64,000 nt of DNA from positions 9,259,501-9,323,500 of the forward strand of contig NZ_CP121668.1 of NCBI RefSeq assembly GCF_029714425.1. The letters run 5' to 3'. This document shows positions 10,289 to 26,889 of this stretch, in pieces. The DNA comes from Bradyrhizobium sp. CB2312 (GTDB taxonomy: Bacteria; Pseudomonadota; Alphaproteobacteria; Rhizobiales; Xanthobacteraceae). A program made the position numbers and the translations under genes. The notes beneath the pieces were generated by a model. It saw nothing but the letters and a program-made list of their open reading frames with translations. It was not told where the DNA came from and did no database searches. Each line of letters begins with the position of its first letter. Position 1 is the first letter of the stretch.

Positions 10289-12520
10289 CTACTTCGTCAG
10301 CAGCGCATATGCCCCGGTCCAGCCTTCCGCCGGCGGATTGACCTGGAAATCCTTGATCCGCGCCTCGTAGAGCTTGAACAGCTTTTCCAGCGTGTCGGCG
10401 TCCTCGCTCTTGCGGCCGCGCGCGATTGCGTCCAGCGCGCCCTGCCAGTTCCGGCTGCGGTAGCAGCCGAGCATCTCGATGGTGATGTTGCGCAGGCGCT
10501 GGAAGGCGGCCGAATGCATCACGTCCTCGCGGCCGGCGATGGCGTAAATCACCTCCGGCTCGGTCTTGCCCTTGACCATGATGAAGTCGAGCTCGAGGAT
10601 CGCGAACTTGTCCTTGGCGGCGAGCGCCGTCCGCGAGCCGACGATGATCGGGAAGCCGTACTCCTTGGACTGCCCTTCCAGCCGCGAGGCCAGATTCACG
10701 CTGTCGCCCAGCACCGAATAGTTGAACTTGCGGTCCGATCCCATGTTGCCGACAACGCCGATGCCGGTGTTGAGGCCGATGCCGACATTGAGCGGGATGT
10801 AGACGTGGCCGCCGTCGGCCGCTTCTTCCTCGCGCTCCTTGTTGACCACGTCGATCTGCTCGAGCATCTGGATCGCAGCCTCGCAGGCGTTGATCTCGTG
10901 CTGGGGATCATCGAGCGGCGCATTCCAGAACGCCATGATGGCGTCGCCCATGTATTTGTCGATATAGCCCTTCTGCTCGATGATCACGTTGGTCAGCGGC
11001 GTCAGGAAGCGGTTCATCAGCGCCGTCAGGCCTTGCGGATCGTGCTTGTAGCTCTCCGAGATCGAGGTGAAGCCGCGCACGTCGGAGAACATGATCGTCA
11101 TCTCGCGCTCCTCGCCGCCGAGCTTCAGCTTCTCCGGCGACTGCGCGAGCTGCTCGACCAGCACGGGCGACATGTACTGCGCGAATTGCCCGCGGATCTG
11201 CACGCGCTGGCGCTGCTCGCGCACGAAGCTGGAGAAGATGAACGTGATGTAGATCGCGGTCGTCGAGAGCAGCGGATAGGTGAAGTCGATGAGGTAGCGG
11301 TACTGCGCGTAGAAGAACCAGGACGTGCCGACGAGACTCGCTGCGAACATCGCGCCCGCGAGTACCAGCCGGACCGGTCCGAGATTCGGCGTGAAGACGA
11401 TGACGAGCAGGCCGATGATCATCGCGACGAGCAATTCGACGCCGAGCGCGTAGTTCGGGCGGGAGATCGCGGCGCCGGTCAGTATGCTTTCGAGCACCTG
11501 GGCGTGAATCTCGACACCCGGCATGGCCCGCGACACCGGCGTGGTCTTGATGTCGTTCAAGCCGACCGCGGAGGTACCGATCAGCACCAGCTTGCCATTG
11601 ACCTTGCTCGGCGACACCGTGTTGTCGAGGACGTCGGCCGCCGAGACGTAGATCGAGGGATCGTGGCGGGCATAGTGCACCCAGAGCTGGCCGTTCTCGT
11701 CGGTCGGGATCTCGACACCCTTGAGGCGGACGGCCCTGATGCCGGTCTTGTCGGTCCGCACCAGCAGCGTCGGCGTGCCCGTGACGACGCGCAGGATCTC
11801 CAGGCTGAGCGAGGGCATGATGTTGCCCTGGGCGCGCATGATCATCGGCACGCGCCGGATCAGGCCGTCGCGCTCGGTCCTGATCGTGAACAGGCCGCGG
11901 CCGGCGGCGACCTTCTCGATGGCGGGCACGTTGCGCAAGAGGCCCGGGAATTCGAACAGGAAGCGCTCGGCCCCCGCTTCACCGACCGTTGCCACGCCGG
12001 TGAAGGGAAGCGCCTTGTCGATCTCCGACGTGATCACCGACTGCCCCGTTTCGCCCAGCACTACGCGCGAGCGCTTGATTGCTTCGGACAGGATCAGGTC
12101 GTTGCTCGGCAGCTCGCGCAGCTTGGCGCGAGTGGCATCGTCCAGATAGCGCATCTGGTCCGCGACGATGTCCGGATTGAGCCGGTCGGCTTCCGAGAAC
12201 ACCACGTCGAAGCCGATCGCGACCGCGCCGTTGCTGGTGAGGCTCTGGATCATGTCCGCGATCCGCGTGCGGGGCCACGGCCACTGGCCAAGCTGGGCGA
12301 GGCTCTTGTCGTCGATGTCGACGATGGTGACCGGCCGCACCGCCTTGTGGCGCGGATCGAGCAGCTGGAACATGTCGAAGGTGCGCAGCCGCAATTCCTG
12401 CACCGGCGGCGGGTCCCACAAGCGCAGTCCCGCAAACACGGCCAGCAGCACGAGGCACATCACCCGCGCAAGGCCGAGCTTGCGCGCAAACCACCGCCGC
12501 AGGATCTTGAGACGTTTCAT
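10289..12520 (-). CDS. CHASE2-domain class III adenylate/guanylate cyclase
   Basis: A 743-residue membrane-bound nucleotide cyclase. The N-terminal anchor (residues 18-36) is followed by a CHASE2 sensor domain (about 50-350; TIVDIDDKSLAQLGQWPWPR), three transmembrane helices (about 361-378, 384-404, 412-432) and a class III catalytic domain (about 470-650). Metal-binding Asp480 (FSDVRGFT) and Asp526 (DKYMGDAIMAF), the adenine-type Lys522 and the GDSVNLASRLEG transition-state Asn/Arg are all present, so it should be active, probably making cAMP. It lies 135 bp downstream of the giant FecR/VCBS protein on the same strand, suggesting a common transcript and function. The sensed signal is unknown. 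Confidence 0.93.
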   Translation of the reverse strand: MKRLKILRRWFARKLGLARVMCLVLLAVFAGLRLWDPPPVQELRLRTFDMFQLLDPRHKAVRPVTIVDIDDKSLAQLGQWPWPRTRIADMIQSLTSNGAVAIGFDVVFSEADRLNPDIVADQMRYLDDATRAKLRELPSNDLILSEAIKRSRVVLGETGQSVITSEIDKALPFTGVATVGEAGAERFLFEFPGLLRNVPAIEKVAAGRGLFTIRTERDGLIRRVPMIMRAQGNIMPSLSLEILRVVTGTPTLLVRTDKTGIRAVRLKGVEIPTDENGQLWVHYARHDPSIYVSAADVLDNTVSPSKVNGKLVLIGTSAVGLNDIKTTPVSRAMPGVEIHAQVLESILTGAAISRPNYALGVELLVAMIIGLLVIVFTPNLGPVRLVLAGAMFAASLVGTSWFFYAQYRYLIDFTYPLLSTTAIYITFIFSSFVREQRQRVQIRGQFAQYMSPVLVEQLAQSPEKLKLGGEEREMTIMFSDVRGFTSISESYKHDPQGLTALMNRFLTPLTNVIIEQKGYIDKYMGDAIMAFWNAPLDDPQHEINACEAAIQMLEQIDVVNKEREEEAADGGHVYIPLNVGIGLNTGIGVVGNMGSDRKFNYSVLGDSVNLASRLEGQSKEYGFPIIVGSRTALAAKDKFAILELDFIMVKGKTEPEVIYAIAGREDVMHSAAFQRLRNITIEMLGCYRSRNWQGALDAIARGRKSEDADTLEKLFKLYEARIKDFQVNPPAEGWTGAYALLTK

Positions 12521-12655
12521 TTCAGTCGGACTTCCTGCCGTGCTGGCCCGATCATGGCGCGCCGGAGTGCGATTGGCTATTCCCCGGATGGGAAGGATTA
12601 CGGATTTTTTTGCTGGGGGCGAGCTGCGCCGGCCACCGGGAGGCCGGGGCGGCGA

Positions 12656-15600
12656 TCAGGTCACGTGGAAAATGAAATCGCTGGCCTTGAGATTTGCGGC
12701 GATCACATTCTTGAGCAACAGCGACTCGTGCTCCGTGATCGGCGCGCCCTCGGCCTGCATGACCTGCTGCTGCCAGCTGACCAGCGTGTCGCCGGATTCC
12801 CCCTGCTGGACGATGGTGAGATTGCCGATGGAGCCGACGCCCGAGAACTGCCGCAGGTCGATCTTGTCGAGGCCTTCCGTGAAATCGGTGATGGTGTGCG
12901 TGAATTCGGTGACGGCATGCCCGGGGTACAGGACCCCCGGCGCGAACACGAACTGATCCTTGGCGCCACCGCCGGTCAGCGTGTCGTTGGTATCGGTCGC
13001 GAAGATCACGTCCTTGCCGTCGGTGCCTTGCAGGGTGATGCCCTGGCTGGTGTTGCCGGCCTCGTGGAAGATGAAATTGACGGTGTCGGACAGGTGCGTG
13101 GTCTTGTCCGTTACCGTCAGCGTGATCTGGTCGGTCGCAGGCGCCGAGGCTTCCGGATCGGTGCTGGCCCCGGTCGGATTGTAGGTCAGGCCGGTCTCGA
13201 AACCCAGATTGATGGCGTCGAGCGAGCCGGAGACCGGAGCGAAATCGACGCTGCTGAGACCCGGATGCGCGGTCGACAACGTGACGGTGAAATCGTGGGT
13301 CGCGGCGCCGGCATCGGTGTCTGTGACCACGAGATCCGTGATGATGTCGCTGTTGTTCTCGATGAGATGCTCGACGTGGAAGTTCTCGGTGTTGATGACC
13401 GGGCCGCTGCCTGCGGGCGCCGTCACGCTGGTGCCGATGCTGGTCGGCCCGTTCGAGACCGGCGTGGTACCGCCGGTGCCCGTGGCGGTGAGGTCGATCG
13501 TCTCCGTCGCGCAGTGGGTGGTGATCGCGCCGGTATAGGTATCGTCGAGGGCATGGACGCCGAGGCTGCCCGGCGTGCCACTGAAACCTTCAGCCGGGAC
13601 GAAGCGGATCAGCGTATCGGTGCTCAGCACCAGCGCGCTGGCGTCGCTGACGCCGGAAATATCGACCCAATGGTGGGTGCCGGCAATCTCGTACTGCCAG
13701 ACGCCCTGGTCCGAGGTGGCGCTGTCGGCGCTCACCGCGACGGCCTTGAAGCTCGCGCCGGTGTCGGCGTCGTGGAACTTGCTCGCGAACAGATCGCTGA
13801 TGGTGCTTCCGCTCGGATCGCTGTCGTTGCCGGCGACGGACGCCAGCGTGGCGTTGTCCAGCGTCGGCGCGTCGTTGCTGCCGGCGATGTTGATGGTGAT
13901 GGTCTGGCTTGCGCCGGTCGTGTGACCGTCATTGGGCGCGATGGTGTATTGCAGCGACAGCGTCTGGCCGGCGGTAAGGAAGTCGAAGGCCTGGCTGCCG
14001 GAATTGAATTCCCAGGTGAACTGGGCGTGCGTGGCGGTGCCGTTGAGGATGTCGCCGGACGGCAAGACGAGATAGTGCATCAGATTCGAGGCCGACAATC
14101 CCTCGAACCCGTCCGCCTGGAGATGGCCGTCGAGATAGATCCCGACGCCAGTGGCGGAGACCATCACGTGATCGGCCGTGTCGGCATCCGACAGGGTCAG
14201 CGTGCGGTGAAGGTCCAGGCCCGCATTGGTCTCGTCCGTGGCCGCGCTGGCGCTGTCACCGCTCTCGACCGTGATCACCGGCGCATCGTTGGCGCCGGTC
14301 ACGTTCACCGTGAACGAGGCCGTGCCGGTGGCGCCATGCGCGTCCTTGGTCTGGACGGTGAACGTATCGGCATAGTTGCCTTCCGACAGCGCGTTGATCG
14401 CCGCCGCATTGGGGACGTAGGTGTAGCTGCCGTCGGCGTTGACCGTCAGCGCGCCATAGTGACCTGCGACCGTCGTCACGGCGTGGCTGGTCGCATCCAG
14501 CACGGCATAGGTCAGTCCCGCCGTCTCGCCATGATCAGCATCGGTCCCGACCAGCGTTCCCGTGATGTCCGAGAAGCTGTCGGTCGCGGCGGTGTCCACG
14601 AGCGGGCCCGTGGTCACCGCAGCCAGCGTCGGCGCGTCGTTCTCGCCGGTGATCGTGACGGTGACGTCGGCCGCAACCTTCTGGCCGGCGCCGTCATCGA
14701 GCGTGATGGTGGAGACGACCTTCACCTTCTGGTCCGGCCCGAGGAAGTCGAGCTTGTTGTCGGCGATCGAATAGTTCCAGGTGACGGTGCCGTTGTTCTT
14801 GCCGGCCTGCTGATAGGTCAGCGCGCTCTTCAGCGCGGCGATCTCGTCGGCCGTGAGCGAGGCGGTGAGATCGGTGGTGCCATCCGCGGCGAGCAGGGTC
14901 ACGGTCTGCTCGGTGACGCTCGCCGTCGGCCGGTCGGTCAGGTCGATGTCGGTGAAGTGGATCGCGCCGGTCGCGGCGGGCGCCGGATCGGGCGTGGTGT
15001 CGTCGGTCTTGTTCTCGCGCTCGGAGAAGTCCGCGCTCAGCGTCGCCGTGGCGGCGTCGTGCGCCGGCGCATCGTCGTTCGCATGGATCGTGATCCGCGT
15101 GTGGCCGGTGCCGTCATCGCTGCCGGCGAAGTGCGCGTGGCTGTAGTCGGCGCCGGTCAGGGTCAGGCTGATGCTCTTGCCGTCCGCGTCGGTGACGGTC
15201 AGCACGCCGCCGGTCGAGGGATCGGCATTGGCGACATAGACCGCGCTGGTGCCGAGCCCGTATTTGATCGTCGACAGGTCGATCGTGTCGGTCGCCGACA
15301 ATTCCGCGATCGATCCGCCGAAGCTCGCCGTATCGATCTGAAGCTCGGCGCCGTCGCCGGCGAGCGTGATCGTCTGCGAGACCGTGCCCTCGAGCTTCAG
15401 CAACGCGCCGGCGTCGACGGTGACCGAGCCCGTGCCGGACAGTGAGCCGAACAGGGTCAGGACGCCATCATGAACCTCGATGGTGCCGGTATTGGTGATG
15501 CTGCCCGAGATCGACGCGGTGCCCCAGCTGTCGATCTCATGGGCGTTGGTGATGTTCAGGCCGGTCCCGAAAATCGAGGCACCGTTGAGCAGATCGATGA

Positions 15601-18600
15601 CGCCGTGGTTGACGATCGAGGACAGGTTGCCGAACACACTGGTGCCGGAAACGGTCCAGGTGCCGGCCGCCTCGTTGTTGAACGTCGCATGCGCGACCGA
15701 GATGTTGCCGTTGATCTCGTGAAAGTTGTTGATCGTGATGGCGCCGCCGGTCTCGACGATCGCATAGGTCGTCGAGGTCACGGCGCCGGCGCCGGGTCCG
15801 ATCGTGCCGGAATTGTCGATCGTCGCCGAGCCCGTGGCGTTTTCCTGGATGAAGATCGCCGCATGGCCGGTCGGGGCCACGATCGACCCGGAATTGGTGA
15901 TGTGGGTGGAGCCGGTCGCGCCGACTTCGTTCTGCGTGACGCTGATGCCGGCGAGGCTGGTGCTGGTGATGTGGCCGTGGTTGACGATGGTGACGTCGCC
16001 CGCGCCGTTGGCGATGGCGGCGAGACCAACCGCGCCCGTGGCGGAGCCGTCATTGGTGACGCTGACGTCGCCGCCGCCATGATCGAACGCGCCGATCGCC
16101 GTGCCTGCGGCGGTGATCTCTGAATTCTGGCCGGTCGTGACCGTGATGTCGCCGACGCCCCAGGTGAACGCCTCGATGCCGTAGCCCGCATCGGCGGTGA
16201 TCTTCGCATCGCTGTTGACGGTGACGTCGCCGTTGACCGCATTGGAGAAGGCGCCGGTCCCGCCGGGCTTGTAGCCGGCGATGATGCCGCCCGGCGTGGT
16301 GCCGTCGTTGTTCAGCGTCGTTCCGGAATGAATAGTGCCATGCGCCTCGACGAAGATCGTGCTGGCAACGCTGCCCGCGATCGCGGTCGCGTAGTTGACG
16401 GCAACGATGCCAGAGCTGTCCGAGGTGATGCTGTCGCCCTTCGCCAGGGTGACGCTGATGTCGCCCTGGTCGACGCTGAAGGCCCGGATGCCGTAGCTCG
16501 TCGCGCCCGAGATCGTGACGTTCTCGCCGAGCGTGACCGTCACGTCGCCGGTGCCGCCACTCAACGCCGAGGCGTTGATGCCGATGCTCTGGGTGCCGGC
16601 GACGGAGATCGTCGTGCCGACAAAGCTTTTCACAGTGACGTCGCCATTGCCGTAATTGTAGGCGTTGATGCCGTAACCGGCCGCGGCGGTGATGCTGCCA
16701 TGGTTGTTGACGACGACCGTGCCGTTGACGTCGGTGTTGGTGCCGGTGCCGCTCGTGGCGCCGGTATAGCCGGCTTCGATGCCACCCGGCGAGTTGCCGG
16801 CGAGGTTCGGGCTGCTGCCGGAATTGATCGTGCCGTAGTTATTGACGGTGATGGTGCTGTCGTCAGACCCGTCGAGCGAGATCGCGCGATTGACGACGAC
16901 GAGGCCCGCGCTGCCCGAAGTGATGATGCTGCCAGCCACGGTCGTGACCGTCTGGCTGCCGCTGCCATAGCTGCGCGACCGGATGCCGTAGATCGAGCTG
17001 CCCGTGATCGCACCGCCGGCGTCGATGGTGATGTCGCCGCCCCCCTGCGTGACAGCGTCGATGCCGTAGGCGCCGCCGACGGCGCCACCGAGCTGGGTGA
17101 TCGAGATGTCGCCGCCATTGGCGCTGTTCAGATTCTCGACGAGAACGCCGACCGAATTCGCGCCGGTGCCGGTCGCCTTCCCGGAGACGTTGTCGACGGT
17201 GATGTCGCCGACGCCGGTGGCGCTGTCGCGCAGCGTGATGCCGTTGCCGGCGAGCCCCTTGATGTCCCCGGTCGCGGTCAGCGAGATGTCGCCGCTGCCG
17301 TTCTGCGTCACGACGACGCCACCCGCGGCGCCGGTCAGCGTTCCCGTGGGCGTGAGGACGATGTCGGCAGGGTTGGCCAGCGTGCCGCCCGACGCCGTGA
17401 AGGCGAGCGCATTGCCGCTCGATGTCGTGATGTCGGCCGTGCCCGTGATGGTGAACGTGCCACCCGTCGACGACTGGCCGGCGATGGTGCCGGTAAAGCT
17501 CTGGCCCGCGACCTTGTCGAGCTGGAGCGTGTCGGTGCCGCCGGCGAAGGTGATGGTTTGCGCGGTCGCCCCCGCGAGCTCCAGCGTCGCGCCGTCGTCG
17601 ATGATCAACCCGCCGACGCCACTGAGACCGCCGGACAAATTGAGCGTGCCGGCCTGCACCTCGATGCTGCCGGTGTTGGTGACGGCAGCCGAGATCGTGC
17701 TGGACCCGGAAACGCCGTAGAGGTTGCCGGCATTGCCGAGGCTGCCGCCATTGATCGAGACGTCGGTGAGATAGAGCTTCGAATGGCTGTCGACGGTGAT
17801 CGTTCCGGTGCTGCTGTTGCTGACGGTGAGATTTGTCAGCTTCAGCGCGCCATAGTTGATCGCCGCGAGAGACGCGGTGTTGGAGATATCTTCGCCGGAG
17901 ATATCGAGCACACCGCCGTTCGCCTGAACGAGACCGTGATTGGTGATGGCGTGGATCGTGGCGGGATCGATCGTCAGCGTGCCGCTGGTGACGGTGATCG
18001 TACCGGTATTGGTGATGTCGGCATTGTCGATGGCGCTCGTGCCGGTCGATTCCAGCGTGCCCGCGATCGTGACGGTGCCGCCGTTGATGCTCGCGCCGCT
18101 GACCGTCAGCTTGCCGTTCGCATCGACCGTGACGTGGCCGGCGTTGGTGACACTGGTGCCCTGGTCGATGGTCAGCCAGCCATTCGCCAGCACCTTGATC
18201 GTGCCGGTGGCGGTGTTCGAGACCGTCTCGTGGGCGAACTCGGCCGTGCCCTTGACGTTGACGTTGCCGGAATTGTTCAGCGTGCCGCTCTCGATCAGGC
18301 TGGTGCCGTCGAGCTGCAGCGTGCCGAGAATGGCGACGGTGCCGCCATCGACGGTCGTGCCGTCGACGATCAGCGTCGTGCCGCCGTCGGCCTTCAGCGT
18401 GCCGCCGGCATTGTGGATCGCAGCCAGCGTCTTCAGCGTGCCGCCGGACAGCTCGATCGTGCCGGAATTGGTGATCGTGGTACCGGCAGCGAAATCGCCG
18501 CCACCTGCAAGCGTCAGATGGCCGGCATTGGTGAGCACGCTGGTGCCGAGGATCTCGGCCTTGCCGCCGACCGACATCGTGCCGGTCGCGGCGTTGGTGA

Positions 18601-20953
18601 GGATCGAGTCCGCGCTCATGTTGAGCGCGCCCGCGATCGTCAGCGAGCTCTGGTTGATCAGCTTCGGCGGCGGGCCGCCAAAGTCGTTCATCGTCACCGA
18701 CTTGGCAAAGGCCGCGGCGTCGATCGTCACCGGATAGGACGGGGTCAGGCCGTGCAGCTGGTCGGTGATGACGATGACGTCGTCATTGATGGTCGGGACC
18801 GTGCCGGTTTCCCAGTTGGCCGCGTCCTTCCAGAACCCGCCCGAGGGAGCGCCCGCCTTGTCGGTCGCGATCCACACCACAGCAGGTGCGTCAGTGCCCT
18901 TGATGGTGACGGTGATGGTCTGCTGCGAGGTCGCGCCTTGCGAATCCGTGAGTGTCACGGTGTAGATGAGCGTCAGCACCTCACCCTTCGGGATGAAGTC
19001 GGCGAGATAGACGGGCAGATCGGCCAGCGACCAGTTGATGGTGCCGGTGCCGTCGCCGGTGCTGTCGGCGCCCGACGCGATCGAGACCGACATCGCTTTC
19101 GCAAACGCCGCGAGCGGGCCCGGCGGCACCGTGCCGTCGGGCAGGGTCGCGCCGGTGAGCTTCACCGACACCGTGTGCGTGTCGGTGAGGTCGACATCGT
19201 CGAAGCTCAGCGTGCCCGAGGTCGGAACGTCGCCGGCGAGCGGACCGCCCGGCACGCTGGTGCCGCCTTCGAAGGTGATGGTCGGCACGCTCGTGGTGAT
19301 CACCGGCTTGTCGTTGGTGCCGGTGATGGTAATCGTGATCGGGATGAGGGCGGATTCAGGGTTGACGGCGAAATTGTTGTTGATGCGGACCATGTAGGTC
19401 AGCGTCAGCGTTTCGCCGGCCGCGAGGAAGTCGAAGACGTGGTCGGGGACCGTGTAGGTCCAGACCGCCGAGCCGTTGTTGTTGTTGGCTGCGTCGGGGA
19501 TGACCTGGATAGCGATCTGGGTCGCCGCGATGTCCTGCTTCTGAAGCGCGGAGAGCGTGCCGGTGACGTCCTGCTGACCGGCGTTCTTGTAGACATAGTT
19601 CGGCGCATCGCCGAGGCTGATCGACACCGTCGGCCGGTCGCCGAGATTTTGATCGACGAAGGTGATTCGGCCGGAGATCGTGTCGAGACCCACGCTGTCA
19701 CCGGACCCGTCCGCACGGTCGCCGGTCGCATTCGTGTGCTCGGTCAGCGTGAATACCGTCTTCACACTGCCGTTGGCATCGAGGCTGCGCGCATCCGGCG
19801 GACCGGGAATGCGGGTGCTGGTCGCCGGTGAGTTGCCGGGCCCCACCGACGTCTGCGGATTGAGGTTCGTGAAGATCGGGATCGCGGTGGCGCCGGACGG
19901 CGTCTTGATCAGGATGCCGTCGCTGGTCTGCGTGATCGTGTCGGTGAAGTTCTGGGTGAGCTTGGTGTTGGTGTTGTTGTCGGTGAACTTCAGCGTGAAC
20001 ACGTCCGTGATCAGCTTCTGCACGTCCGGCGACAGCAGCCCGTTGGTGATCGAGACGTTGCCGCCGCTGATCTGGATCATCTGGCCGGCCTGATTGACAG
20101 TCGCGATCGGCAGCAGCGTGACCTTGTCGAACAGGATGTAGGAGCCCGTCGTGCCGTTCGGCTCGACCAGCACCTGGAAGCTCGCCTGCGGCTGCGGATC
20201 GCCGCCGCCGGCGGGAACGACGAAGTTGATCTGGGTCAGCACCGCCGTGCCGCGGATGCCCATGGTGGCGACCGGCGTGTCGATCTTCATGTCGCCGTGC
20301 TTGGCGGTCTCGCCGGCGACGAAGGTGATGGTGCCGGCGACGAGGCTCAGCAGCGAGGAGTTGCTCGACCCGTTGGGGTCGTAGACCATCTCGTTCAGCA
20401 CCATCCGCGCATTCGAGGACAGGCCGAACACGGTGCCGTCGATGAAGGTGATGCCGAGCGTCGAATCGGCGCCGGTCGAGCACACGTCGCCCTTCTCGAC
20501 GTTGTCGCCGTTGTTGAGGATGACCGAGACGCCGTTGCGGATCGCGGTCGCGCTGCCCGACAGCTTGGTGACGTGGCCGATGACCTGGGCCGCGGCAACG
20601 CCTGACGCGGCCTGCGCATATTGCACATGGCCCGTGAGCGCGTTGACGACGTCGCCGGTGAGGTGGGCGCCGTCGGGCGAGGCGACCGCCGCGCGCTTGT
20701 CGCCCCTGAAATAATCGTGGACGACGAACTCGTGCCCGTCATGGGAGAGCACGAGGTCGAGGCCGGCGCGCTTGAACTCGCCGTTGAAGATCAGGTTGGC
20801 ATCGGGAACAACCACCGCGCCGTCAGGCAGCTGGCCATGCGCCTTGGCGATGAACGGCTTGCCGGTCAACGAATCGACATGAAGGTCGGCGGGCGAGCGG
20901 GAACTCGGACCGTCCATGGCGATCGCGGCGTCAAATTTGCCAGCGTAGTTCAA
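12656..20953 (-). CDS. Giant FecR/VCBS-repeat surface protein with type I secretion-like C-terminus
   Basis: A 2765-residue protein without a Sec signal. Residues about 123-240 form a FecR-like domain (VIGHVTKLSGSATAIRNG, VATMGIRGTAVLT). VCBS/cadherin-like repeats (ITITGTNDKPVI, TGENDAPTL, VTGANDAPVI, IAGSNDAPTL) occur at about 400-700 and in the last third. The middle (about 700-1850) is a beta-helix-like array rich in TNTGTI, NSGTI and YGI units resembling autotransporter passengers. The end carries a GTDGKDVIFATDTNDTLTGG nonapeptide-like segment and a type I secretion target region. It is probably a secreted adhesin. The frame opens with TTG at 20953; ATG at 20917 (MDGPSSRS) is an alternative. 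No type I exporter genes are in the window. Confidence 0.88.
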   Translation of the reverse strand: MNYAGKFDAAIAMDGPSSRSPADLHVDSLTGKPFIAKAHGQLPDGAVVVPDANLIFNGEFKRAGLDLVLSHDGHEFVVHDYFRGDKRAAVASPDGAHLTGDVVNALTGHVQYAQAASGVAAAQVIGHVTKLSGSATAIRNGVSVILNNGDNVEKGDVCSTGADSTLGITFIDGTVFGLSSNARMVLNEMVYDPNGSSNSSLLSLVAGTITFVAGETAKHGDMKIDTPVATMGIRGTAVLTQINFVVPAGGGDPQPQASFQVLVEPNGTTGSYILFDKVTLLPIATVNQAGQMIQISGGNVSITNGLLSPDVQKLITDVFTLKFTDNNTNTKLTQNFTDTITQTSDGILIKTPSGATAIPIFTNLNPQTSVGPGNSPATSTRIPGPPDARSLDANGSVKTVFTLTEHTNATGDRADGSGDSVGLDTISGRITFVDQNLGDRPTVSISLGDAPNYVYKNAGQQDVTGTLSALQKQDIAATQIAIQVIPDAANNNNGSAVWTYTVPDHVFDFLAAGETLTLTYMVRINNNFAVNPESALIPITITITGTNDKPVITTSVPTITFEGGTSVPGGPLAGDVPTSGTLSFDDVDLTDTHTVSVKLTGATLPDGTVPPGPLAAFAKAMSVSIASGADSTGDGTGTINWSLADLPVYLADFIPKGEVLTLIYTVTLTDSQGATSQQTITVTIKGTDAPAVVWIATDKAGAPSGGFWKDAANWETGTVPTINDDVIVITDQLHGLTPSYPVTIDAAAFAKSVTMNDFGGPPPKLINQSSLTIAGALNMSADSILTNAATGTMSVGGKAEILGTSVLTNAGHLTLAGGGDFAAGTTITNSGTIELSGGTLKTLAAIHNAGGTLKADGGTTLIVDGTTVDGGTVAILGTLQLDGTSLIESGTLNNSGNVNVKGTAEFAHETVSNTATGTIKVLANGWLTIDQGTSVTNAGHVTVDANGKLTVSGASINGGTVTIAGTLESTGTSAIDNADITNTGTITVTSGTLTIDPATIHAITNHGLVQANGGVLDISGEDISNTASLAAINYGALKLTNLTVSNSSTGTITVDSHSKLYLTDVSINGGSLGNAGNLYGVSGSSTISAAVTNTGSIEVQAGTLNLSGGLSGVGGLIIDDGATLELAGATAQTITFAGGTDTLQLDKVAGQSFTGTIAGQSSTGGTFTITGTADITTSSGNALAFTASGGTLANPADIVLTPTGTLTGAAGGVVVTQNGSGDISLTATGDIKGLAGNGITLRDSATGVGDITVDNVSGKATGTGANSVGVLVENLNSANGGDISITQLGGAVGGAYGIDAVTQGGGDITIDAGGAITGSSIYGIRSRSYGSGSQTVTTVAGSIITSGSAGLVVVNRAISLDGSDDSTITVNNYGTINSGSSPNLAGNSPGGIEAGYTGATSGTGTNTDVNGTVVVNNHGSITAAAGYGINAYNYGNGDVTVKSFVGTTISVAGTQSIGINASALSGGTGDVTVTLGENVTISGATSYGIRAFSVDQGDISVTLAKGDSITSDSSGIVAVNYATAIAGSVASTIFVEAHGTIHSGTTLNNDGTTPGGIIAGYKPGGTGAFSNAVNGDVTVNSDAKITADAGYGIEAFTWGVGDITVTTGQNSEITAAGTAIGAFDHGGGDVSVTNDGSATGAVGLAAIANGAGDVTIVNHGHITSTSLAGISVTQNEVGATGSTHITNSGSIVAPTGHAAIFIQENATGSATIDNSGTIGPGAGAVTSTTYAIVETGGAITINNFHEINGNISVAHATFNNEAAGTWTVSGTSVFGNLSSIVNHGVIDLLNGASIFGTGLNITNAHEIDSWGTASISGSITNTGTIEVHDGVLTLFGSLSGTGSVTVDAGALLKLEGTVSQTITLAGDGAELQIDTASFGGSIAELSATDTIDLSTIKYGLGTSAVYVANADPSTGGVLTVTDADGKSISLTLTGADYSHAHFAGSDDGTGHTRITIHANDDAPAHDAATATLSADFSERENKTDDTTPDPAPAATGAIHFTDIDLTDRPTASVTEQTVTLLAADGTTDLTASLTADEIAALKSALTYQQAGKNNGTVTWNYSIADNKLDFLGPDQKVKVVSTITLDDGAGQKVAADVTVTITGENDAPTLAAVTTGPLVDTAATDSFSDITGTLVGTDADHGETAGLTYAVLDATSHAVTTVAGHYGALTVNADGSYTYVPNAAAINALSEGNYADTFTVQTKDAHGATGTASFTVNVTGANDAPVITVESGDSASAATDETNAGLDLHRTLTLSDADTADHVMVSATGVGIYLDGHLQADGFEGLSASNLMHYLVLPSGDILNGTATHAQFTWEFNSGSQAFDFLTAGQTLSLQYTIAPNDGHTTGASQTITINIAGSNDAPTLDNATLASVAGNDSDPSGSTISDLFASKFHDADTGASFKAVAVSADSATSDQGVWQYEIAGTHHWVDISGVSDASALVLSTDTLIRFVPAEGFSGTPGSLGVHALDDTYTGAITTHCATETIDLTATGTGGTTPVSNGPTSIGTSVTAPAGSGPVINTENFHVEHLIENNSDIITDLVVTDTDAGAATHDFTVTLSTAHPGLSSVDFAPVSGSLDAINLGFETGLTYNPTGASTDPEASAPATDQITLTVTDKTTHLSDTVNFIFHEAGNTSQGITLQGTDGKDVIFATDTNDTLTGGGAKDQFVFAPGVLYPGHAVTEFTHTITDFTEGLDKIDLRQFSGVGSIGNLTIVQQGESGDTLVSWQQQVMQAEGAPITEHESLLLKNVIAANLKASDFIFHVT

Positions 20954-21571
20954 CCGGGCACCGTAAAAAGGGGTTAATATTTATGTAAGTATCGACCGAC
21001 TAAGCTTGCTTAGCATTACCAAGTCGTTAGCGAAACCATCTATTGCTTGTGTGATTTCGCGTCACTTGGCCATAGGAGCCTGCGCCGAGCGGCGCCGAAC
21101 AGAGAAGCTGAAGTAGTTTTTGAAGCATCCCAAAGTCGAATTGGGCTTATCTGCGCGCATTTCCAGTCATCCAAAGTAATCTGTCGTATAGATGAAACGG
21201 CAGATACTTGTGTCATCTCTTCTTCGTGATGCCCCGCAGCACCCTGCGGCAAACACGGGACTGAATCTGTGACCTAACTAACAGAACCCGTGAAATAGCG
21301 GGCTGTTAGCCATAGGACCCAGAATCGCCCGCCTCACAACCTGTGCCTGCAATTGGTCCCATTTCGCGGCAGCGAGTGCTCTCCTAGCCGGCGAATCGTA
21401 AAATTTTACGCAATTTGGGCAGGCCCGTTTCAGCCTGTCCTCCGGTTTTGGGACCCTGGCCGTGCGCGTTAAGCAGAACAAAACGGCCCGCCTCGCACTA
21501 TCGCCGCGAAAGCAACAAAGCCCGGTGCGTCGAGGTCGAGGGGACCCGGCGAAGCCGGAAGGGGATGTCAG
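20954..21571. promoter_or_regulatory. Divergent regulatory region between the giant adhesin and the LapG-like protease
   Basis: This 618-bp region is richer in A/T than its surroundings. It contains a perfect 14-bp palindrome CGTAAAATTTTACG at 21397-21410 and a hairpin at 21278-21309 (CTAACAG...CTGTTAG outer arms, CCCG/CGGG inner arms). A short frame at 21040-21252 on the minus strand has no recognisable features and was not accepted. Promoters of both flanking genes must lie here, but no clear -35/-10 could be fixed. Confidence 0.5.
21397..21410. promoter_or_regulatory. Perfect palindrome, candidate operator
   Basis: CGTAAAATTTTACG is fully self-complementary and A/T-rich in a G/C-rich genome, 162 bp before the LapG-like start. 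It has the form of a dimeric regulator site, but the regulator is unknown. Confidence 0.35.
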
Positions 21572-22303
21572 ATGGAGACCGCTGCTCGCTCGCGCGCCTG
21601 GCGCGCAATCCTTGTCATGTGCGGCTTGATCCTGCTCGGATCGGCGGCCGAAATTCGCGCCGGCACGCTGCTGTCGCCCGGAGCGGGCGTCCTCGTGCGC
21701 AAATCCGCCGAGCCGTTCGGTGTGTTCGCCTTCGCGATCTCCGGCGGCACCCTGCGGGAGAAATGGTCCGCGCTGAAGGCGAGGCTCGACGACGACATGG
21801 TGCAGCTCGCGCTGTGCGACGGCGACCGCGACAATTGTGCTTCGCCCGCGGCCTTGAGGCTGCTCGCCATCGTCGACCAGGCCCGCGCCCGCGACGGCCG
21901 CGCGCGGCTGGGCGAGACCAACCGCGCCATCAACCTGGCCATCCGCTCCGCCAATGACGGCATCGACGATGTCTGGAGCTCGCCGCTTGCCACCTTCGCG
22001 CGCGGCGCCGGCGATTGCGAAGACTATGCCATCGCCAAGCTCGCCGCGCTGCGACTTGCCGGCGTTGCCGCCGACGATCTCCGCATCGTCGTGGTGCGCG
22101 ACGTCAGGGCCGGCGAAGAGCATGCGGTGGTCGCCGCAAAGCTCGACGGCCACTGGCTGATGCTCGACAACCGCCGCATGGCGATGGTCGAGGACCACGC
22201 CGCGCGGAGCTACCAGCCGCTGTTCGTGCTCTACCAGGCGGCGGTGATGAAATATGTCGACGAGCCGGTGCGGTTCTCGATGGTCGCCGCCGAGGGGCGG
22301 TGA
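21572..22303 (+). CDS. Periplasmic transglutaminase-like cysteine protease (LapG/BTLCP family)
   Basis: A 243-residue exported protein of the bacterial transglutaminase-like cysteine proteinase family (DUF920), whose best-studied member LapG cuts the N-terminal region of giant adhesins to release them from the outer membrane. The catalytic triad is readable: Cys149 in GAGDCEDYA, His184 in GEEHAVV and Asp199 in WLMLDN. A signal peptide precedes AEIRAGTLL. The ribosome-binding site GGAAGGGG supports the start. It is divergent from the giant FecR/VCBS protein, an apparent substrate candidate. No LapD-type c-di-GMP receptor is in the window. An IS110-type element begins 12 bp after its stop. Confidence 0.85.
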   Translation: METAARSRAWRAILVMCGLILLGSAAEIRAGTLLSPGAGVLVRKSAEPFGVFAFAISGGTLREKWSALKARLDDDMVQLALCDGDRDNCASPAALRLLAIVDQARARDGRARLGETNRAINLAIRSANDGIDDVWSSPLATFARGAGDCEDYAIAKLAALRLAGVAADDLRIVVVRDVRAGEEHAVVAAKLDGHWLMLDNRRMAMVEDHAARSYQPLFVLYQAAVMKYVDEPVRFSMVAAEGR

Positions 22304-22426: not shown

Positions 22427-23461
22427 GTGGAGAATTATGCCGGAATCGACGTGTCATTGGAACTGTCGAGCGTGTGTGTTGTGGACGCCCAGGGTAAGAT
22501 CCTGAAGGAAGCGAAGGTCGCAAGCGAACCCGACGCCTTAGTTGAGTTTTTTGAGACGCTCGGCTTTGCAGTGAAGCGGATCGGGCTGGAGGCTGGGCCG
22601 CTGTCGCAATGGCTGCATGCAGGCCTGAAAGGTGCAGGATTTGAAACAGTTCTGCTGGAAACGCGGCACGTGAAGGCCGCATTATCTGCAATGACGGTCA
22701 AGACGGATCGCAAGGATGCCCGCGGGATCGCCCAGTTGATCCGGATGGGATGGTTTCGGCAGGTACACGCAAAGTCGGTTGATGCGCAAGAGATCCGGGC
22801 ACTCCTGATCGCACGCAAACAGCTTCTCGGGCGGCTGATCGATGTAGAATTAAGTATCCGAGGGATTTTGCGCGGCTTCGGTCTGAAGGTTGGCCCGGTG
22901 ACGCGAAGGAATTTCGAAGCGCGGATTCGAGAGTTGGTTGCAGGCCAGGCGACATTGGAGCGCATTGCTGGTGCGATGCTTTCGGCACGATCGGCCCTGA
23001 AGGCAGAATACGGAAGACTACACAAGGCTGTGCTGGCAATTGTGCGTGATGATGCAGTCTGCCGCCGGCTTATGACAGTACCAGGCGTTGGTCCCCTGGT
23101 GGCCATCACCTACAAATCGGCGATTGATGATCCTCATCGCATTGTAAAGTCAAAGGCAGCAGGCGCGCTGTTCGGGCTCACGCCAAAGAAATATCAATCG
23201 GGAGAAAAGGACGTCACGGGCGGAATCACGCTGGCCGGCGATGAGACGGTGCGGACGGCCTTGTATGAAGCCGCCAACGTTCTGCTATCGCGCATCACGC
23301 GGTTCTCAAAACTCAAACGCTGGGGGATGGACGTCGCCAAGCGGAGAGGCTCGAAGCGCGCAAAGGTCGCCTTGGCACGCAAGCTCGCAGTGATCCTGCA
23401 TCGGATCTGGGTCGATGGCACGACTTACCGATGGGCCGAAGCGGGCTCAATCGCAGCATAG
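22427..23461 (+). CDS. IS110-family transposase (DEDD/Tnp_20)
   Basis: A 344-residue transposase starting with GTG after GGAGGACAG. The N-terminal RuvC-like DEDD domain shows Asp8 (YAGIDVS), Glu55 (IGLEAG), Asp94 and Asp97 (KTDRKDARG). The C-terminal Tnp_20 domain shows the helix-hairpin-helix-like TVPGVGPLVAITYKS and the region around QSGEKDVTGG, where the family's catalytic Ser is expected. Length is full and the frame is intact, so it may be active. IS110 enzymes work with a structured guide (bridge) RNA made from the element's own non-coding end. Confidence 0.93.
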   Translation: MENYAGIDVSLELSSVCVVDAQGKILKEAKVASEPDALVEFFETLGFAVKRIGLEAGPLSQWLHAGLKGAGFETVLLETRHVKAALSAMTVKTDRKDARGIAQLIRMGWFRQVHAKSVDAQEIRALLIARKQLLGRLIDVELSIRGILRGFGLKVGPVTRRNFEARIRELVAGQATLERIAGAMLSARSALKAEYGRLHKAVLAIVRDDAVCRRLMTVPGVGPLVAITYKSAIDDPHRIVKSKAAGALFGLTPKKYQSGEKDVTGGITLAGDETVRTALYEAANVLLSRITRFSKLKRWGMDVAKRRGSKRAKVALARKLAVILHRIWVDGTTYRWAEAGSIAA

Positions 23462-25213: not shown

Positions 25214-26889
25214 CAGCTTTTGACCCTGGCTGTGTGAAAAGTCACGAGTCGGCTAGGATTCTTCCGTTTCCTGATGGGGGATACGGATGGGACGCTTCGT
25301 TGAAGGCGCGGACAGATCCCAGCTGACGCTCTTGCCGGAATGTCTGGAGGATTGGGTAGGCGAGGACAACGCGGTCCACGTGATCGATGTGTTCGTCGAG
25401 GCGCTCGACCTGCATGGAATGGGGTTTGAGCGTGTGATCGCCAAGGAGACGGGCCGGCCCTCCTATCATCCGGCAGTCCTTCTGAAGCTTTACATCTACG
25501 GTTATCTCAATCGGCTGCAATCCAGTCGCCGCCTGGAACGTGAGACGTGCCGCAATGTCGAGGTAATGTGGCTGATTGGGCGCCTGGCTCCCGATCACAA
25601 GACGATCGCCGATTTCCGGAAGGATAACGGCGCGGCGATCCGGAAGGTTTGCGCGAAGTTCGTTGCACTATGCCGGCAAATGGGCCTGTTGCAGACCGCA
25701 AGCGTCGCAATCGACGGCAGCAAGTTCAAGGCGGTGAACAACCGCGACCGCAACTTCACGCATGCCAAGATGGCAAGGCGGATGGCGCAGATCGAGGAAA
25801 GCGTCGGTCGATATCTGCGTCAACTCGATAGCGCCGATCGGCAGGAGCCATCGGAAGCGATCAGCATCAAGACGACGAGGATCAAGGAAAAGATCGCTCG
25901 GCTGAAGCAGGAGATGAGCCGCCTGGAAGTGCTTGATGCGCAGATGCGCAACACGCCGGATCAACAGATATCGCTGACCGATCCGGATGCCCGTTCGATG
26001 GCCACCAGCGGACGCGGATCGGGTGTCGTCGGCTACAACGTCCAGGTCGCGGTGGACACCGAACACCATCTGATTGTGACGCACGAGGTCATAAACGTCG
26101 GCAACGACCGTGGGCAGCTTGCTCGGATGTCGAAGCAGGCCAAAGAAGTGCTCGCAGTGGACAAACTCGATGCGGTCGCCGATCGTGGCTACTTCGACGG
26201 AGAGGAGATATTGGCCTGCGAAGAGGCTGGCGTTGCAGTCACCTTGCCCAAGCCCATGACGTCGAACGCCAAGGCGGAGGGCCGGTTCGGCAAACAGGAC
26301 TTCGCCTACCTGCCTGATGAGGATGTCTACCGCTGCCCATCGGGCCAGCTGCTGCCCTATCACTTCACCAACATCGAGCATGGAATGACGCTGCGCCGTT
26401 ACTGGTCGACGGCGGCATGCCAAGGCTGCGCGATCAAGAGCCAATGTACGCCGTCCAAGGAGCGCCGGATCACGCGCTGGGAGCATGAGCATGTGGTCGA
26501 GGAGGTCCAGCGACGGCTCGATTCCAATCCTGACGCCATGCGGACGCGACGTGAGACAGTCGAGCATCCCTTCGGCACGATCAAAGCCCGTATGGGTGCG
26601 ACCCACTTCCTGATGAAGCGCCTACGGAATGTCGCCGCTGAGATGGCGCTGCATGTTCTCGCCTATAACCTCACACGGGTGATGAACATCGTCGGCAAAC
26701 CGCGCCTGATTGCAGCCATCCGCGCCGCCTGAAGGCCGGAAAGCGCGTCCAAAACCGCAATACCCCGTCGCGATACCCACTTTGGCCGGTCATTGGACGA
26801 TCCGATGCGTCAGCACCGGCCGCCTGCAATGATTGGCGACCACGCCGCGTCCGACCTATCCGTTTGCACACAACCAAGACCCGAAGACG
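25214..26889 (+). mobile_element. IS1182-family insertion sequence
   Basis: An intact transposase is flanked by imperfect terminal inverted repeats of about 27 bp (18 matches): left 25214-25240 (ends GGCTGTGTGAAAA) and right 26863-26889 (begins TTTGCACACAACC). The total length of about 1.68 kb is normal for the family. Target duplications could not be seen with confidence, so the outer limits are approximate. Confidence 0.7.
25287..26732 (+). CDS. IS1182-family transposase (DDE)
   Basis: A full-length 481-residue DDE transposase. The N-terminal DUF772-like domain (PSYHPAVLLKLYIYGYLNRL) is followed by ASVAIDGSKFKAVNNRDRNF with the first Asp, ADRGYFDGEEI with the second Asp and RRETVEHPFGTIKARMG with the Glu. 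A Cys-rich segment (CQGCAIKSQC) precedes the last motif, as is usual for this family. No frameshift or stop is present. Confidence 0.93.
   Translation: MGRFVEGADRSQLTLLPECLEDWVGEDNAVHVIDVFVEALDLHGMGFERVIAKETGRPSYHPAVLLKLYIYGYLNRLQSSRRLERETCRNVEVMWLIGRLAPDHKTIADFRKDNGAAIRKVCAKFVALCRQMGLLQTASVAIDGSKFKAVNNRDRNFTHAKMARRMAQIEESVGRYLRQLDSADRQEPSEAISIKTTRIKEKIARLKQEMSRLEVLDAQMRNTPDQQISLTDPDARSMATSGRGSGVVGYNVQVAVDTEHHLIVTHEVINVGNDRGQLARMSKQAKEVLAVDKLDAVADRGYFDGEEILACEEAGVAVTLPKPMTSNAKAEGRFGKQDFAYLPDEDVYRCPSGQLLPYHFTNIEHGMTLRRYWSTAACQGCAIKSQCTPSKERRITRWEHEHVVEEVQRRLDSNPDAMRTRRETVEHPFGTIKARMGATHFLMKRLRNVAAEMALHVLAYNLTRVMNIVGKPRLIAAIRAA

What the first reader, a model, noticed from the sequence alone, without database searches (positions are those of the whole stretch)
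10289..22303. CHASE2 cyclase, giant FecR/VCBS adhesin and LapG-like protease in one locus
Seen: a 2765-residue protein with FecR-like domain, VCBS repeats and a type I secretion-like C-terminus; a CHASE2 class III cyclase 135 bp downstream on the same strand; and a divergent periplasmic cysteine protease with a full LapG triad (Cys149, His184, Asp199). Known: LapG cuts LapA-like adhesins under control of the c-di-GMP receptor LapD. Inference: here the release of the adhesin may be tied to a cAMP-making membrane sensor instead, since no LapD is in the window. This would be a new way of coupling a giant adhesin to cyclic nucleotide signalling.
Basis: partly seen in the sequence, partly recalled or inferred. 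Interest (0 to 1): 0.78.

Follow-up and report, generated by a model that had tools for sequence, protein, structure and literature searches.

The report
Giant adhesin operon with its own cyclase
In almost every Bradyrhizobium genome looked at, the gene for a giant surface-sticking protein stands beside genes for a membrane enzyme that should make a signalling nucleotide and for a cutting enzyme, with an exporter close by, which suggests that the surface protein is tied into the cell's internal signalling.

Summary
The three genes are where stated and the neighbourhood is conserved: 38 of 40 Bradyrhizobium loci, and 70 of 80 named loci (in the other ten the stretch ends too early to see the cyclase). 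The FecR-like head matches 5ix9 (E 1.4e-8), the anchoring region of an RTX adhesin (entry recalled). The protease is LapG-like. No LapD was found in the genome (PF16448).

Adhesin, exporter and cyclase are also linked in other genera of the class with no C93 protease in the stretch, so the cyclase is not simply a substitute for LapD. The LapG consensus site is not conserved. In four genomes the CHASE2 half was swapped while head and protease stayed. A CRP-like site is shared by 54 of 80 adhesin/protease promoters. Best reading: a LapA-like adhesin whose display state is read by a CHASE2 cyclase, with cAMP acting back on transcription. FecR-CHASE2 pairing and cAMP-Lap crosstalk are known elsewhere; no printed account of this operon was seen.

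The parts
10289..12520 (-). CHASE2 class III cyclase (probable adenylate cyclase), 743 aa
   Evidence: Pfam CHASE2 1.5e-61 and Guanylate_cyc 5.5e-21; D480, K522, D526, N609, R613 in 98 of 98 aligned copies, residue 602 S in 95 and T in 3 (some copies are the same strain twice)
11408..12448 (-). CHASE2 periplasmic sensor domain (residues 25-371)
   Evidence: exchanged together with the membrane part, residues 1 to about 435, in 4 distinct genomes
10553..11107 (-). cyclase catalytic domain (residues 472-656)
   Evidence: solved adenylate cyclase relatives 6fht, 2w01, 3r5g
12521..12655 (-). 135-bp adhesin-cyclase gap; no terminator-like or promoter-like match in 12300-12900
12656..20953 (-). giant adhesin, 2765 aa, TTG start
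20618..20827 (-). N-terminal prefix domain of the head (residues about 43-112)
   Evidence: alignment of 25 heads from several families
20084..20584 (-). FecR-like retention module (residues about 124-290)
   Evidence: Pfam FecR at 157-238; head profile matches one solved chain only, 5ix9 residues 12-86 of 195, E 1.4e-8
19955..20044 (-). helix-like stretch and N-rich turn after the retention module (residues about 304-333); candidate protease recognition segment
   Evidence: N..N[PT] pattern in 51 of 53 heads with a linked C93, 0 of 10 without; pattern chosen after seeing them
12659..13186 (-). C-terminal RTX/type I secretion-like region
   Evidence: read from the sequence; the family name is recalled
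21268..21283 (-). CRP-like palindrome TGTTA-N6-TCACA in the shared adhesin/protease promoter region
21397..21410 (.). palindrome CGTAAAATTTTACG, candidate operator
   Evidence: 36 of 80 regions, mean 0 in shuffles
21572..22303 (+). LapG-like C93 cysteine protease, 243 aa, signal peptide-like N-terminus (read by eye)

Best explanation
The locus is a Lap-like surface display system with a receptor cyclase built in. SHOWN by comparison: a giant adhesin with an RTX-type (FecR-like) retention module, a linked ABC/HlyD exporter, a CHASE2 cyclase and, in Bradyrhizobium and related genera, a LapG-like protease (divergently encoded in most) form a conserved unit. INFERRED: the exporter threads the adhesin out until the folded head jams in the periplasm, so the adhesin stays displayed. 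The CHASE2 domain in the periplasm reads the head, the loaded exporter or a signal delivered through it, and sets cAMP production. cAMP with a CRP-type regulator acts on the shared adhesin/protease promoter. The protease cuts just after the retention module and lets the adhesin go. Direction proposed: from adhesin to cyclase, not from cyclase to protease.
For: Gene order: 38 of 40 Bradyrhizobium loci, one of them put together from two stretches without reading the gene between; 79 of 80 named loci with divergent protease and 70 of 80 with cyclase. Exporter: between adhesin and cyclase in 9 of 9 loci of other genera that show all three genes, and orthologous and 3.6-11.4 kb downstream of the cyclase in 9 of 9 Bradyrhizobium examined. 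Adhesin-ABC-HlyD-cyclase order in L353, L355, L356 of other families of the class. Head profile to 5ix9, E 1.4e-8. Protease: NCBIfam CystProtLapG 7.9e-16 and chains 4u65 (4.8e-17) and 4fgo (2.9e-10), LapG entries as recalled. Head and protease distances correlate beyond rpoB and the cyclase catalytic domain (r 0.51-0.63, p 0.001). CRP-like site in 54 of 80 promoter regions against 0.05 in shuffles. Precedents for FecR proteins beside CHASE2 receptors.
Against: No residual head-CHASE2 covariation in the full set (r 0.07, p 0.15), because four genomes carry a different CHASE2 half with the same kind of head. Distances correlate across the whole locus: protease and cyclase catalytic domain given rpoB give r 0.64 in the full set, more than head and protease (0.43), so shared inheritance of the locus could explain it. 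No structure or complex could be predicted. The CRP-like site has one mismatch, is missing in 26 of 80 regions and in 10 of 10 promoters of other genera, and the 80 regions are kin, which the shuffles ignore. No LapG consensus site is conserved. Two order loci and four class loci with the same head show no cyclase in the stretch although the adhesin ends inside it.
Confidence: 0.45

Rival explanations
1. One reading: the CHASE2 cyclase takes LapD's place and holds or frees the protease, so that adhesin release follows the state of the cAMP-making sensor.
For: No LapD found by PF16448. Protease and cyclase stay side by side in G006, where the head lies on another contig, and in the draft genome G289, head also on another contig. 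Without the four mosaics and G037, protease and CHASE2 distances correlate beyond rpoB and the catalytic domain (r 0.47, p 0.001). A non-LapD receptor already serves a Lap-like system in Desulfovibrio (DvhD, PMC13090378, passages).
Against: Cyclase and adhesin are linked where no C93 protease lies in the stretch; 2 of 11 such genomes have no C93 at all. In the full set there is no residual protease-CHASE2 covariation (r 0.03, p 0.34).
Confidence: 0.18
2. The CHASE2 domain senses an unrelated envelope or plant signal. The cyclase is in the operon only so that adhesin and protease are made when cAMP is high, through a CRP-type regulator.
For: CRP-like site between adhesin and protease genes. CHASE2 half exchanged against a constant head. 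S. meliloti CHASE2 cyclases respond to a plant protein through an outer-membrane barrel (PMC13001267, passages).
Against: A transcriptional link does not need a cyclase gene beside the adhesin, yet the pair recurs across families. FecR-type partners recur beside CHASE2 receptors in the literature.
Confidence: 0.3
3. The protease does not cut this adhesin; it acts on other envelope proteins, and the adhesin is held or shed without it.
For: LapG consensus site not conserved. The genome has five other C93 loci. Score far below the LapG equivalog cut-off (57.9 against 320 bits).
Against: Divergent neighbour of the head in 79 of 80 loci. LapG-like by profile. Protease-linked heads share a distinct segment after the retention module. 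Distance correlation with the head, confounded by adjacency.
Confidence: 0.2

Closest known systems
Lap system of Pseudomonas (LapA, LapG, LapD; outlined in PMC13090378, passages; gene linkage recalled)
   Same: Giant type I adhesin with a periplasmic retention module, linked exporter, LapG-like protease with the triad
   Different: No LapD found; a CHASE2 cyclase in the locus; no conserved [TAP]AAG site; an extra prefix domain before the module
Dvh system of Desulfovibrio (DvhA, DvhG, DvhD; PMC13090378, passages)
   Same: Shows that the receptor side of a Lap-like system can have another architecture
   Different: DvhD is a dCache/PAS/HD-GYP c-di-GMP receptor, not a cyclase
Shewanella Bpf system with CRP (PMC8938473, passages)
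   Same: cAMP influences retention of a giant adhesin
   Different: There cAMP-CRP acts through the LapD homologue BpfD; here no LapD was found and the cyclase is encoded in the locus
FecR protein plus CHASE2 receptor gene pairs: Campylobacterota cyclase cluster (PMC9239204, passages) and Burkholderia BiofilmReg histidine kinase operon (PMC5192318, passages)
   Same: A FecR-domain envelope protein encoded beside a CHASE2 receptor
   Different: There an outer-membrane or LysM-FecR protein; here the FecR-like domain is the retention module of a giant adhesin with an exporter

Membership tests
LapA-type RTX adhesin | N-terminal periplasmic retention module | tested here: met
   Head profile A4 matches one solved chain only, 5ix9_A residues 12-86, E 1.4e-8 (listed as 'Antifreeze protein', its identity as the anchoring region recalled). 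By sequence; no fold could be compared
LapA-type RTX adhesin | Linked type I exporter (ABC, HlyD) | tested here: met
   Orthologous ABC/HlyD linked in 9 of 9 Bradyrhizobium and 9 of 9 loci of other genera with all three genes; Pfam ABC_tran and HlyD_3 in the own genome. No TolC/LapE partner was looked for
LapA-type RTX adhesin | LapG cleavage motif [TAP]AAG after the module | tested here: not met
   [TPA]AA[GV] in 9 of 63 heads with 120 further residues; after the module in 3 of 53 protease-linked heads and 5 of 80 named
LapG | C93 family with Cys-His-Asp triad | tested here: met
   PF06035 1.2e-14; triad invariant in 18 of 18; aligned to 4u65 and 4fgo
LapG | NCBIfam LapG equivalog cut-off | tested here: not met
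   57.9 bits against 320: LapG-like, not filed as LapG
LapG | Cuts the adhesin and is held by a receptor | not testable with these tools
   Needs purified proteins
LapD | LapD_MoxY_N receptor with GGDEF/EAL in the genome | tested here: not met
   Single weak hit is a MoxY-like histidine kinase as read from its ORF; a receptor of another fold cannot be excluded
Class III adenylate cyclase | Two metal Asp, Lys, transition-state Asn and Arg | tested here: met
   D480, D526, K522, N609, R613 in 98 of 98; the roles of the residues are recalled
Class III adenylate cyclase | Makes cAMP rather than cGMP | not testable with these tools
   Lys522 and Ser602 suggest cAMP (recalled rule)
FecR-CHASE2 receptor pairs | FecR-domain protein encoded beside a CHASE2 receptor | tested here: met
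   binding not testable

The most novel reading that the evidence does not exclude
A giant adhesin acts as the antenna of a receptor cyclase: its retention module, jammed in the exporter, is the periplasmic ligand of CHASE2. Attachment, pulling or proteolytic loss of the adhesin is thereby converted into a cAMP change, and cAMP-CRP closes the loop on the adhesin/protease promoter.
Probability: 0.27. Interest if true: 0.85.

Novelty: new variant of a known kind. Interest (0 to 1): 0.6.

Why it matters
If right, giant adhesins of a major group of soil and root bacteria are wired to cAMP and not only to c-di-GMP, and a surface protein would report its own state to the cell. It would also suggest an answer to what CHASE2 domains sense in such operons, namely FecR-like domains of envelope proteins, and give a clear genetic test in non-pathogenic strains.

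Tried and rejected
Rejected: chance neighbourhood. A LapD elsewhere in the genome, by PF16448. The protease as a LapG equivalog. A conserved canonical LapG site. Inconclusive: alanine pairs in the linker between prefix and FecR domain, because the linker could be read in only 2 of 10 heads without the protease (48 of 53 with it, 40 of these with a pair). Exact CRP-type, a relaxed CRP-type and a Clr-type pattern (recalled consensus) gave 0 of 80; the one-mismatch form was found afterwards by eye in the conserved columns and then counted. In the distance test the rpoB control was wrong (wrong strand chosen for some or one genome) and corrected; one search failed on a recalled motif. I also withdrew L190 as a locus without adhesin, since its head lies 11 kb away. 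The odds of that rival were raised from 0.15 to 0.18 for this.

Not done: structure prediction of the head or the protease and any fold search; each attempt met a full queue. The own genome's TolC-type channels and CRP-type regulators were not searched for.
Full report
What is there. The window lies at C1:9259501-9323500 of a 9.78-Mb single-contig genome. Its genus is Bradyrhizobium by its named relatives: 74 of 80 records bear that name, and some have the contig lengths of G genomes of the genus. The three genes are as described: adhesin 12656-20953 (-), CHASE2 cyclase 10289-12520 (-) 135 bp downstream, C93 protease 21572-22303 (+). The adhesin start is a rare TTG, but in the aligned relatives similarity begins there. 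The genome holds six C93 loci, four CHASE2 loci and no LapD by PF16448: the one weak hit is a MoxY-like histidine kinase as read from its ORF.

Conservation in the genus. The cyclase was found in 60 of 60 genomes searched, own included. Of 40 loci fetched from these, 37 show protease, adhesin head and cyclase in the same order and orientation. One more (L079) is completed by the neighbouring stretch L139, which holds head and protease; the very long gene between was not read through. One locus ends at a contig end (L086). In one (L090) protease and cyclase stand side by side and the head lies on another contig. Divergent protease: 79 of 80, the other contig ending too early. Cyclase downstream: 70 of 80, the other ten stretches ending within the adhesin or at most about 250 bases after it. 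In 3 of the 70 (L263, L267, L285) 1.4 to 4.2 kb lie between the head's open frame and the cyclase. Head identity to the window is 67-96% in 15 and 42% in one of 16 aligned relatives, while adhesin length (1.4 to 3.7 thousand residues) and middle vary greatly.

The exporter. In other genera of the family, 20 regions were taken from the 25 listed protease matches outside the genus (47 of 119 genomes matched, five of them of the genus; regions). Nine of 20 show protease, adhesin and cyclase in the same order. Five show protease and head, all with the stretch or contig ending before a cyclase could be seen. Two show protease and cyclase: L190, whose head lies 11 kb away, and the draft L182, whose head is on another contig. 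Four show the protease alone. In all nine, an ABC transporter and an HlyD protein lie between adhesin and cyclase. Their orthologues (ABC 72-80%, HlyD 78-84% identical; other own-genome copies at most 43% and 37%) lie 3.6 to 11.4 kb beyond the cyclase in 9 of 9 Bradyrhizobium examined, in the own genome at C1:9255870-9258919, 0.6 kb outside the window. The own genome has six HlyD genes over the cut-off.

Wider distribution. In the order, 55 of 199 genomes matched the head profile, many only over the FecR part. Ten long-headed loci were examined: cyclase next to the adhesin in five, three run off the contig, two have none in the stretch. Two weak-headed loci have a divergent cyclase; four small FecR proteins have none. 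No protease of this type was found in these stretches. In the class, 42 of 289 genomes matched, own included; ten loci were fetched within the letters left. Three show adhesin-ABC-HlyD-CHASE2 cyclase, one a divergent cyclase, two run off contigs, four show no cyclase in the stretch. Nine of 11 such genomes have a C93 gene on another contig or far away, and two have none. So the adhesin-exporter-cyclase association is broader than the association with the protease.

What the parts are. The head profile matches one solved chain only, 5ix9 (E 1.4e-8, over residues 12-86 of 195). The listing calls it 'Antifreeze protein'; that it is the anchoring region of the Marinomonas primoryensis RTX adhesin is recalled. 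PMC13090378 (passages) describes that adhesin's anchoring domain as the prototype. Thus the FecR-like domain is most likely the retention module, preceded by a further conserved prefix domain. The protease matches NCBIfam CystProtLapG at 57.9 bits against a cut-off of 320, and its profile matches 4u65 (4.8e-17, 'putative cystine protease') and 4fgo (2.9e-10, 'periplasmic protein'), which I recall as LapG entries. The canonical motif [TPA]AA[GV] is present in 9 of 63 heads. Instead, protease-linked heads share a helix-like stretch and an N-rich turn after the module: the pattern N..N[PT] is in 51 of 53 linked heads and 77 of 80 named, and in 0 of 10 unlinked heads of the order; of ten class heads only two could be read (0 of 2). 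The pattern was chosen after seeing the sequences, and the linked heads are close kin. The cyclase keeps the catalytic residues in 98 of 98 copies.

Covariation. In 29 Bradyrhizobium with rpoB as control (29 of 30 genomes gave rpoB), head and protease distances stay correlated after rpoB and the catalytic domain are removed (r 0.51 in the full set, 0.59 without the divergent head G037, 0.63 also without the four mosaics; p 0.001). But the whole locus correlates: protease and catalytic domain given rpoB r 0.64-0.68; head and catalytic domain 0.06 in the full set, 0.67-0.70 without G037. Shared inheritance of neighbouring genes could explain all of it. Head and CHASE2 show no residual correlation in the full set (0.07, p 0.15) nor without G037 (0.05, p 0.31), and a moderate one without the mosaics (0.38, p 0.001); protease and CHASE2 likewise 0.03, 0.02 and 0.47. 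The mosaics are a finding in themselves: in four genomes CHASE2 (residues 40-360) is only 61-65% like the window while catalytic domain, head and protease are 81-90% alike, the break lying near residue 435. This speaks against a tight, specific head-CHASE2 interface, or for a sensor that is exchanged to change specificity.

Promoter. Between protease and adhesin lies TGTTA-N6-TCACA (21268-21283), one base from the CRP consensus TGTGA-N6-TCACA (recalled). The pattern TGT[TG]A-N6-TCACA occurs in 54 of 80 promoter regions (window plus 79 named; L238 dropped as too short) against 0.05 in shuffles, and in 0 of 10 regions of other genera. The regions are kin, so the shuffles overstate the case. In 71 distinct regions the half-sites are 0.91 conserved and the six bases between 0.64, ranking 6th and 3rd of 609 positions by half-site conservation and by the difference. 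It is the only such site in the window and one of 18 in the genome (the pattern read backwards gives 5 and 2). This suggests, but does not show, that cAMP acts back on adhesin and protease transcription.

Mechanism and standing. Shown by comparison: one conserved unit of adhesin, exporter, cyclase and, in this family, protease; an RTX-type retention module by sequence; a LapG-like protease; no LapD found. Inferred: the periplasmic head or loaded exporter is read by CHASE2, cAMP feeds back through a CRP-type regulator, the protease releases the adhesin. Known context: LapD/LapG control by c-di-GMP and a different receptor in Desulfovibrio (PMC13090378, passages); cAMP-CRP acting through the LapD homologue in Shewanella (PMC8938473, passages); FecR proteins beside CHASE2 receptors in Campylobacterota (PMC9239204, passages) and Burkholderia (PMC5192318, passages); S. 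meliloti CHASE2 cyclases activated through an outer-membrane protein (PMC13001267, passages); a CHASE2 cyclase gene after mtxA in magnetic bacteria (PMC4439547, passages). Ten searches of the held library showed no description of this operon. Seen whole (titles and abstract starts): FecR with CHASE2, 3 of 3 papers; LapG/retention/adhesin/FecR, 15 of 15; LapG/LapD/Bradyrhizobium, 7 of 7; large adhesin/cyclase/LapG, 11 of 11; FecR/VCBS/adenylate/CHASE2/LapG, 5 of 5. Seen in part: 20 of 29; 25 of 16,275; 15 of 26; 15 of 475; 15 of 358. Subscription papers are not held.

Noticed in passing
L071, L072, L074, L075 (cyclase residues 1 to about 435): The sensor half of the cyclase is replaced by a divergent version while the catalytic half, the adhesin head and the protease stay close to the window's: allelic exchange of a CHASE2 sensor.
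   Followed up: partly
window 21397-21410: Perfect palindrome CGTAAAATTTTACG in the adhesin/protease intergenic region, present in 36 of 80 regions: a candidate operator of unknown owner.
   Followed up: partly
window 21000-21013: Inverted repeat CTAAGC-AA-GCTTAG just upstream of the adhesin start, found in 9 of 80 regions.
   Followed up: no
G000:C1:2378817-2380508 (L137): A second own-genome pair: a 229-aa FecR-like frame divergent from a 1374-residue FecR-headed frame, with no match to the protease or cyclase profiles in the 18.5-kb stretch.
   Followed up: partly
G170:C134:30229-31683: A paralogue of the protease stands next to a small FecR-like frame, a second protease-FecR pairing.
   Followed up: no
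L263, L267, L285: The head's open frame ends 1.4-4.2 kb before the cyclase, unlike the other 67 loci with a cyclase; a broken adhesin frame or further genes, not examined.
   Followed up: no
window 22427-23461 and 25287-26732: Transposase-like ORFs (IS110-like and another) downstream of the protease; families recalled from reading, not scanned.
   Followed up: no
L201:7171-8640: An AMP nucleosidase-type gene (AMNp_N 4.4e-56) follows the HlyD gene on the same strand.
   Followed up: no
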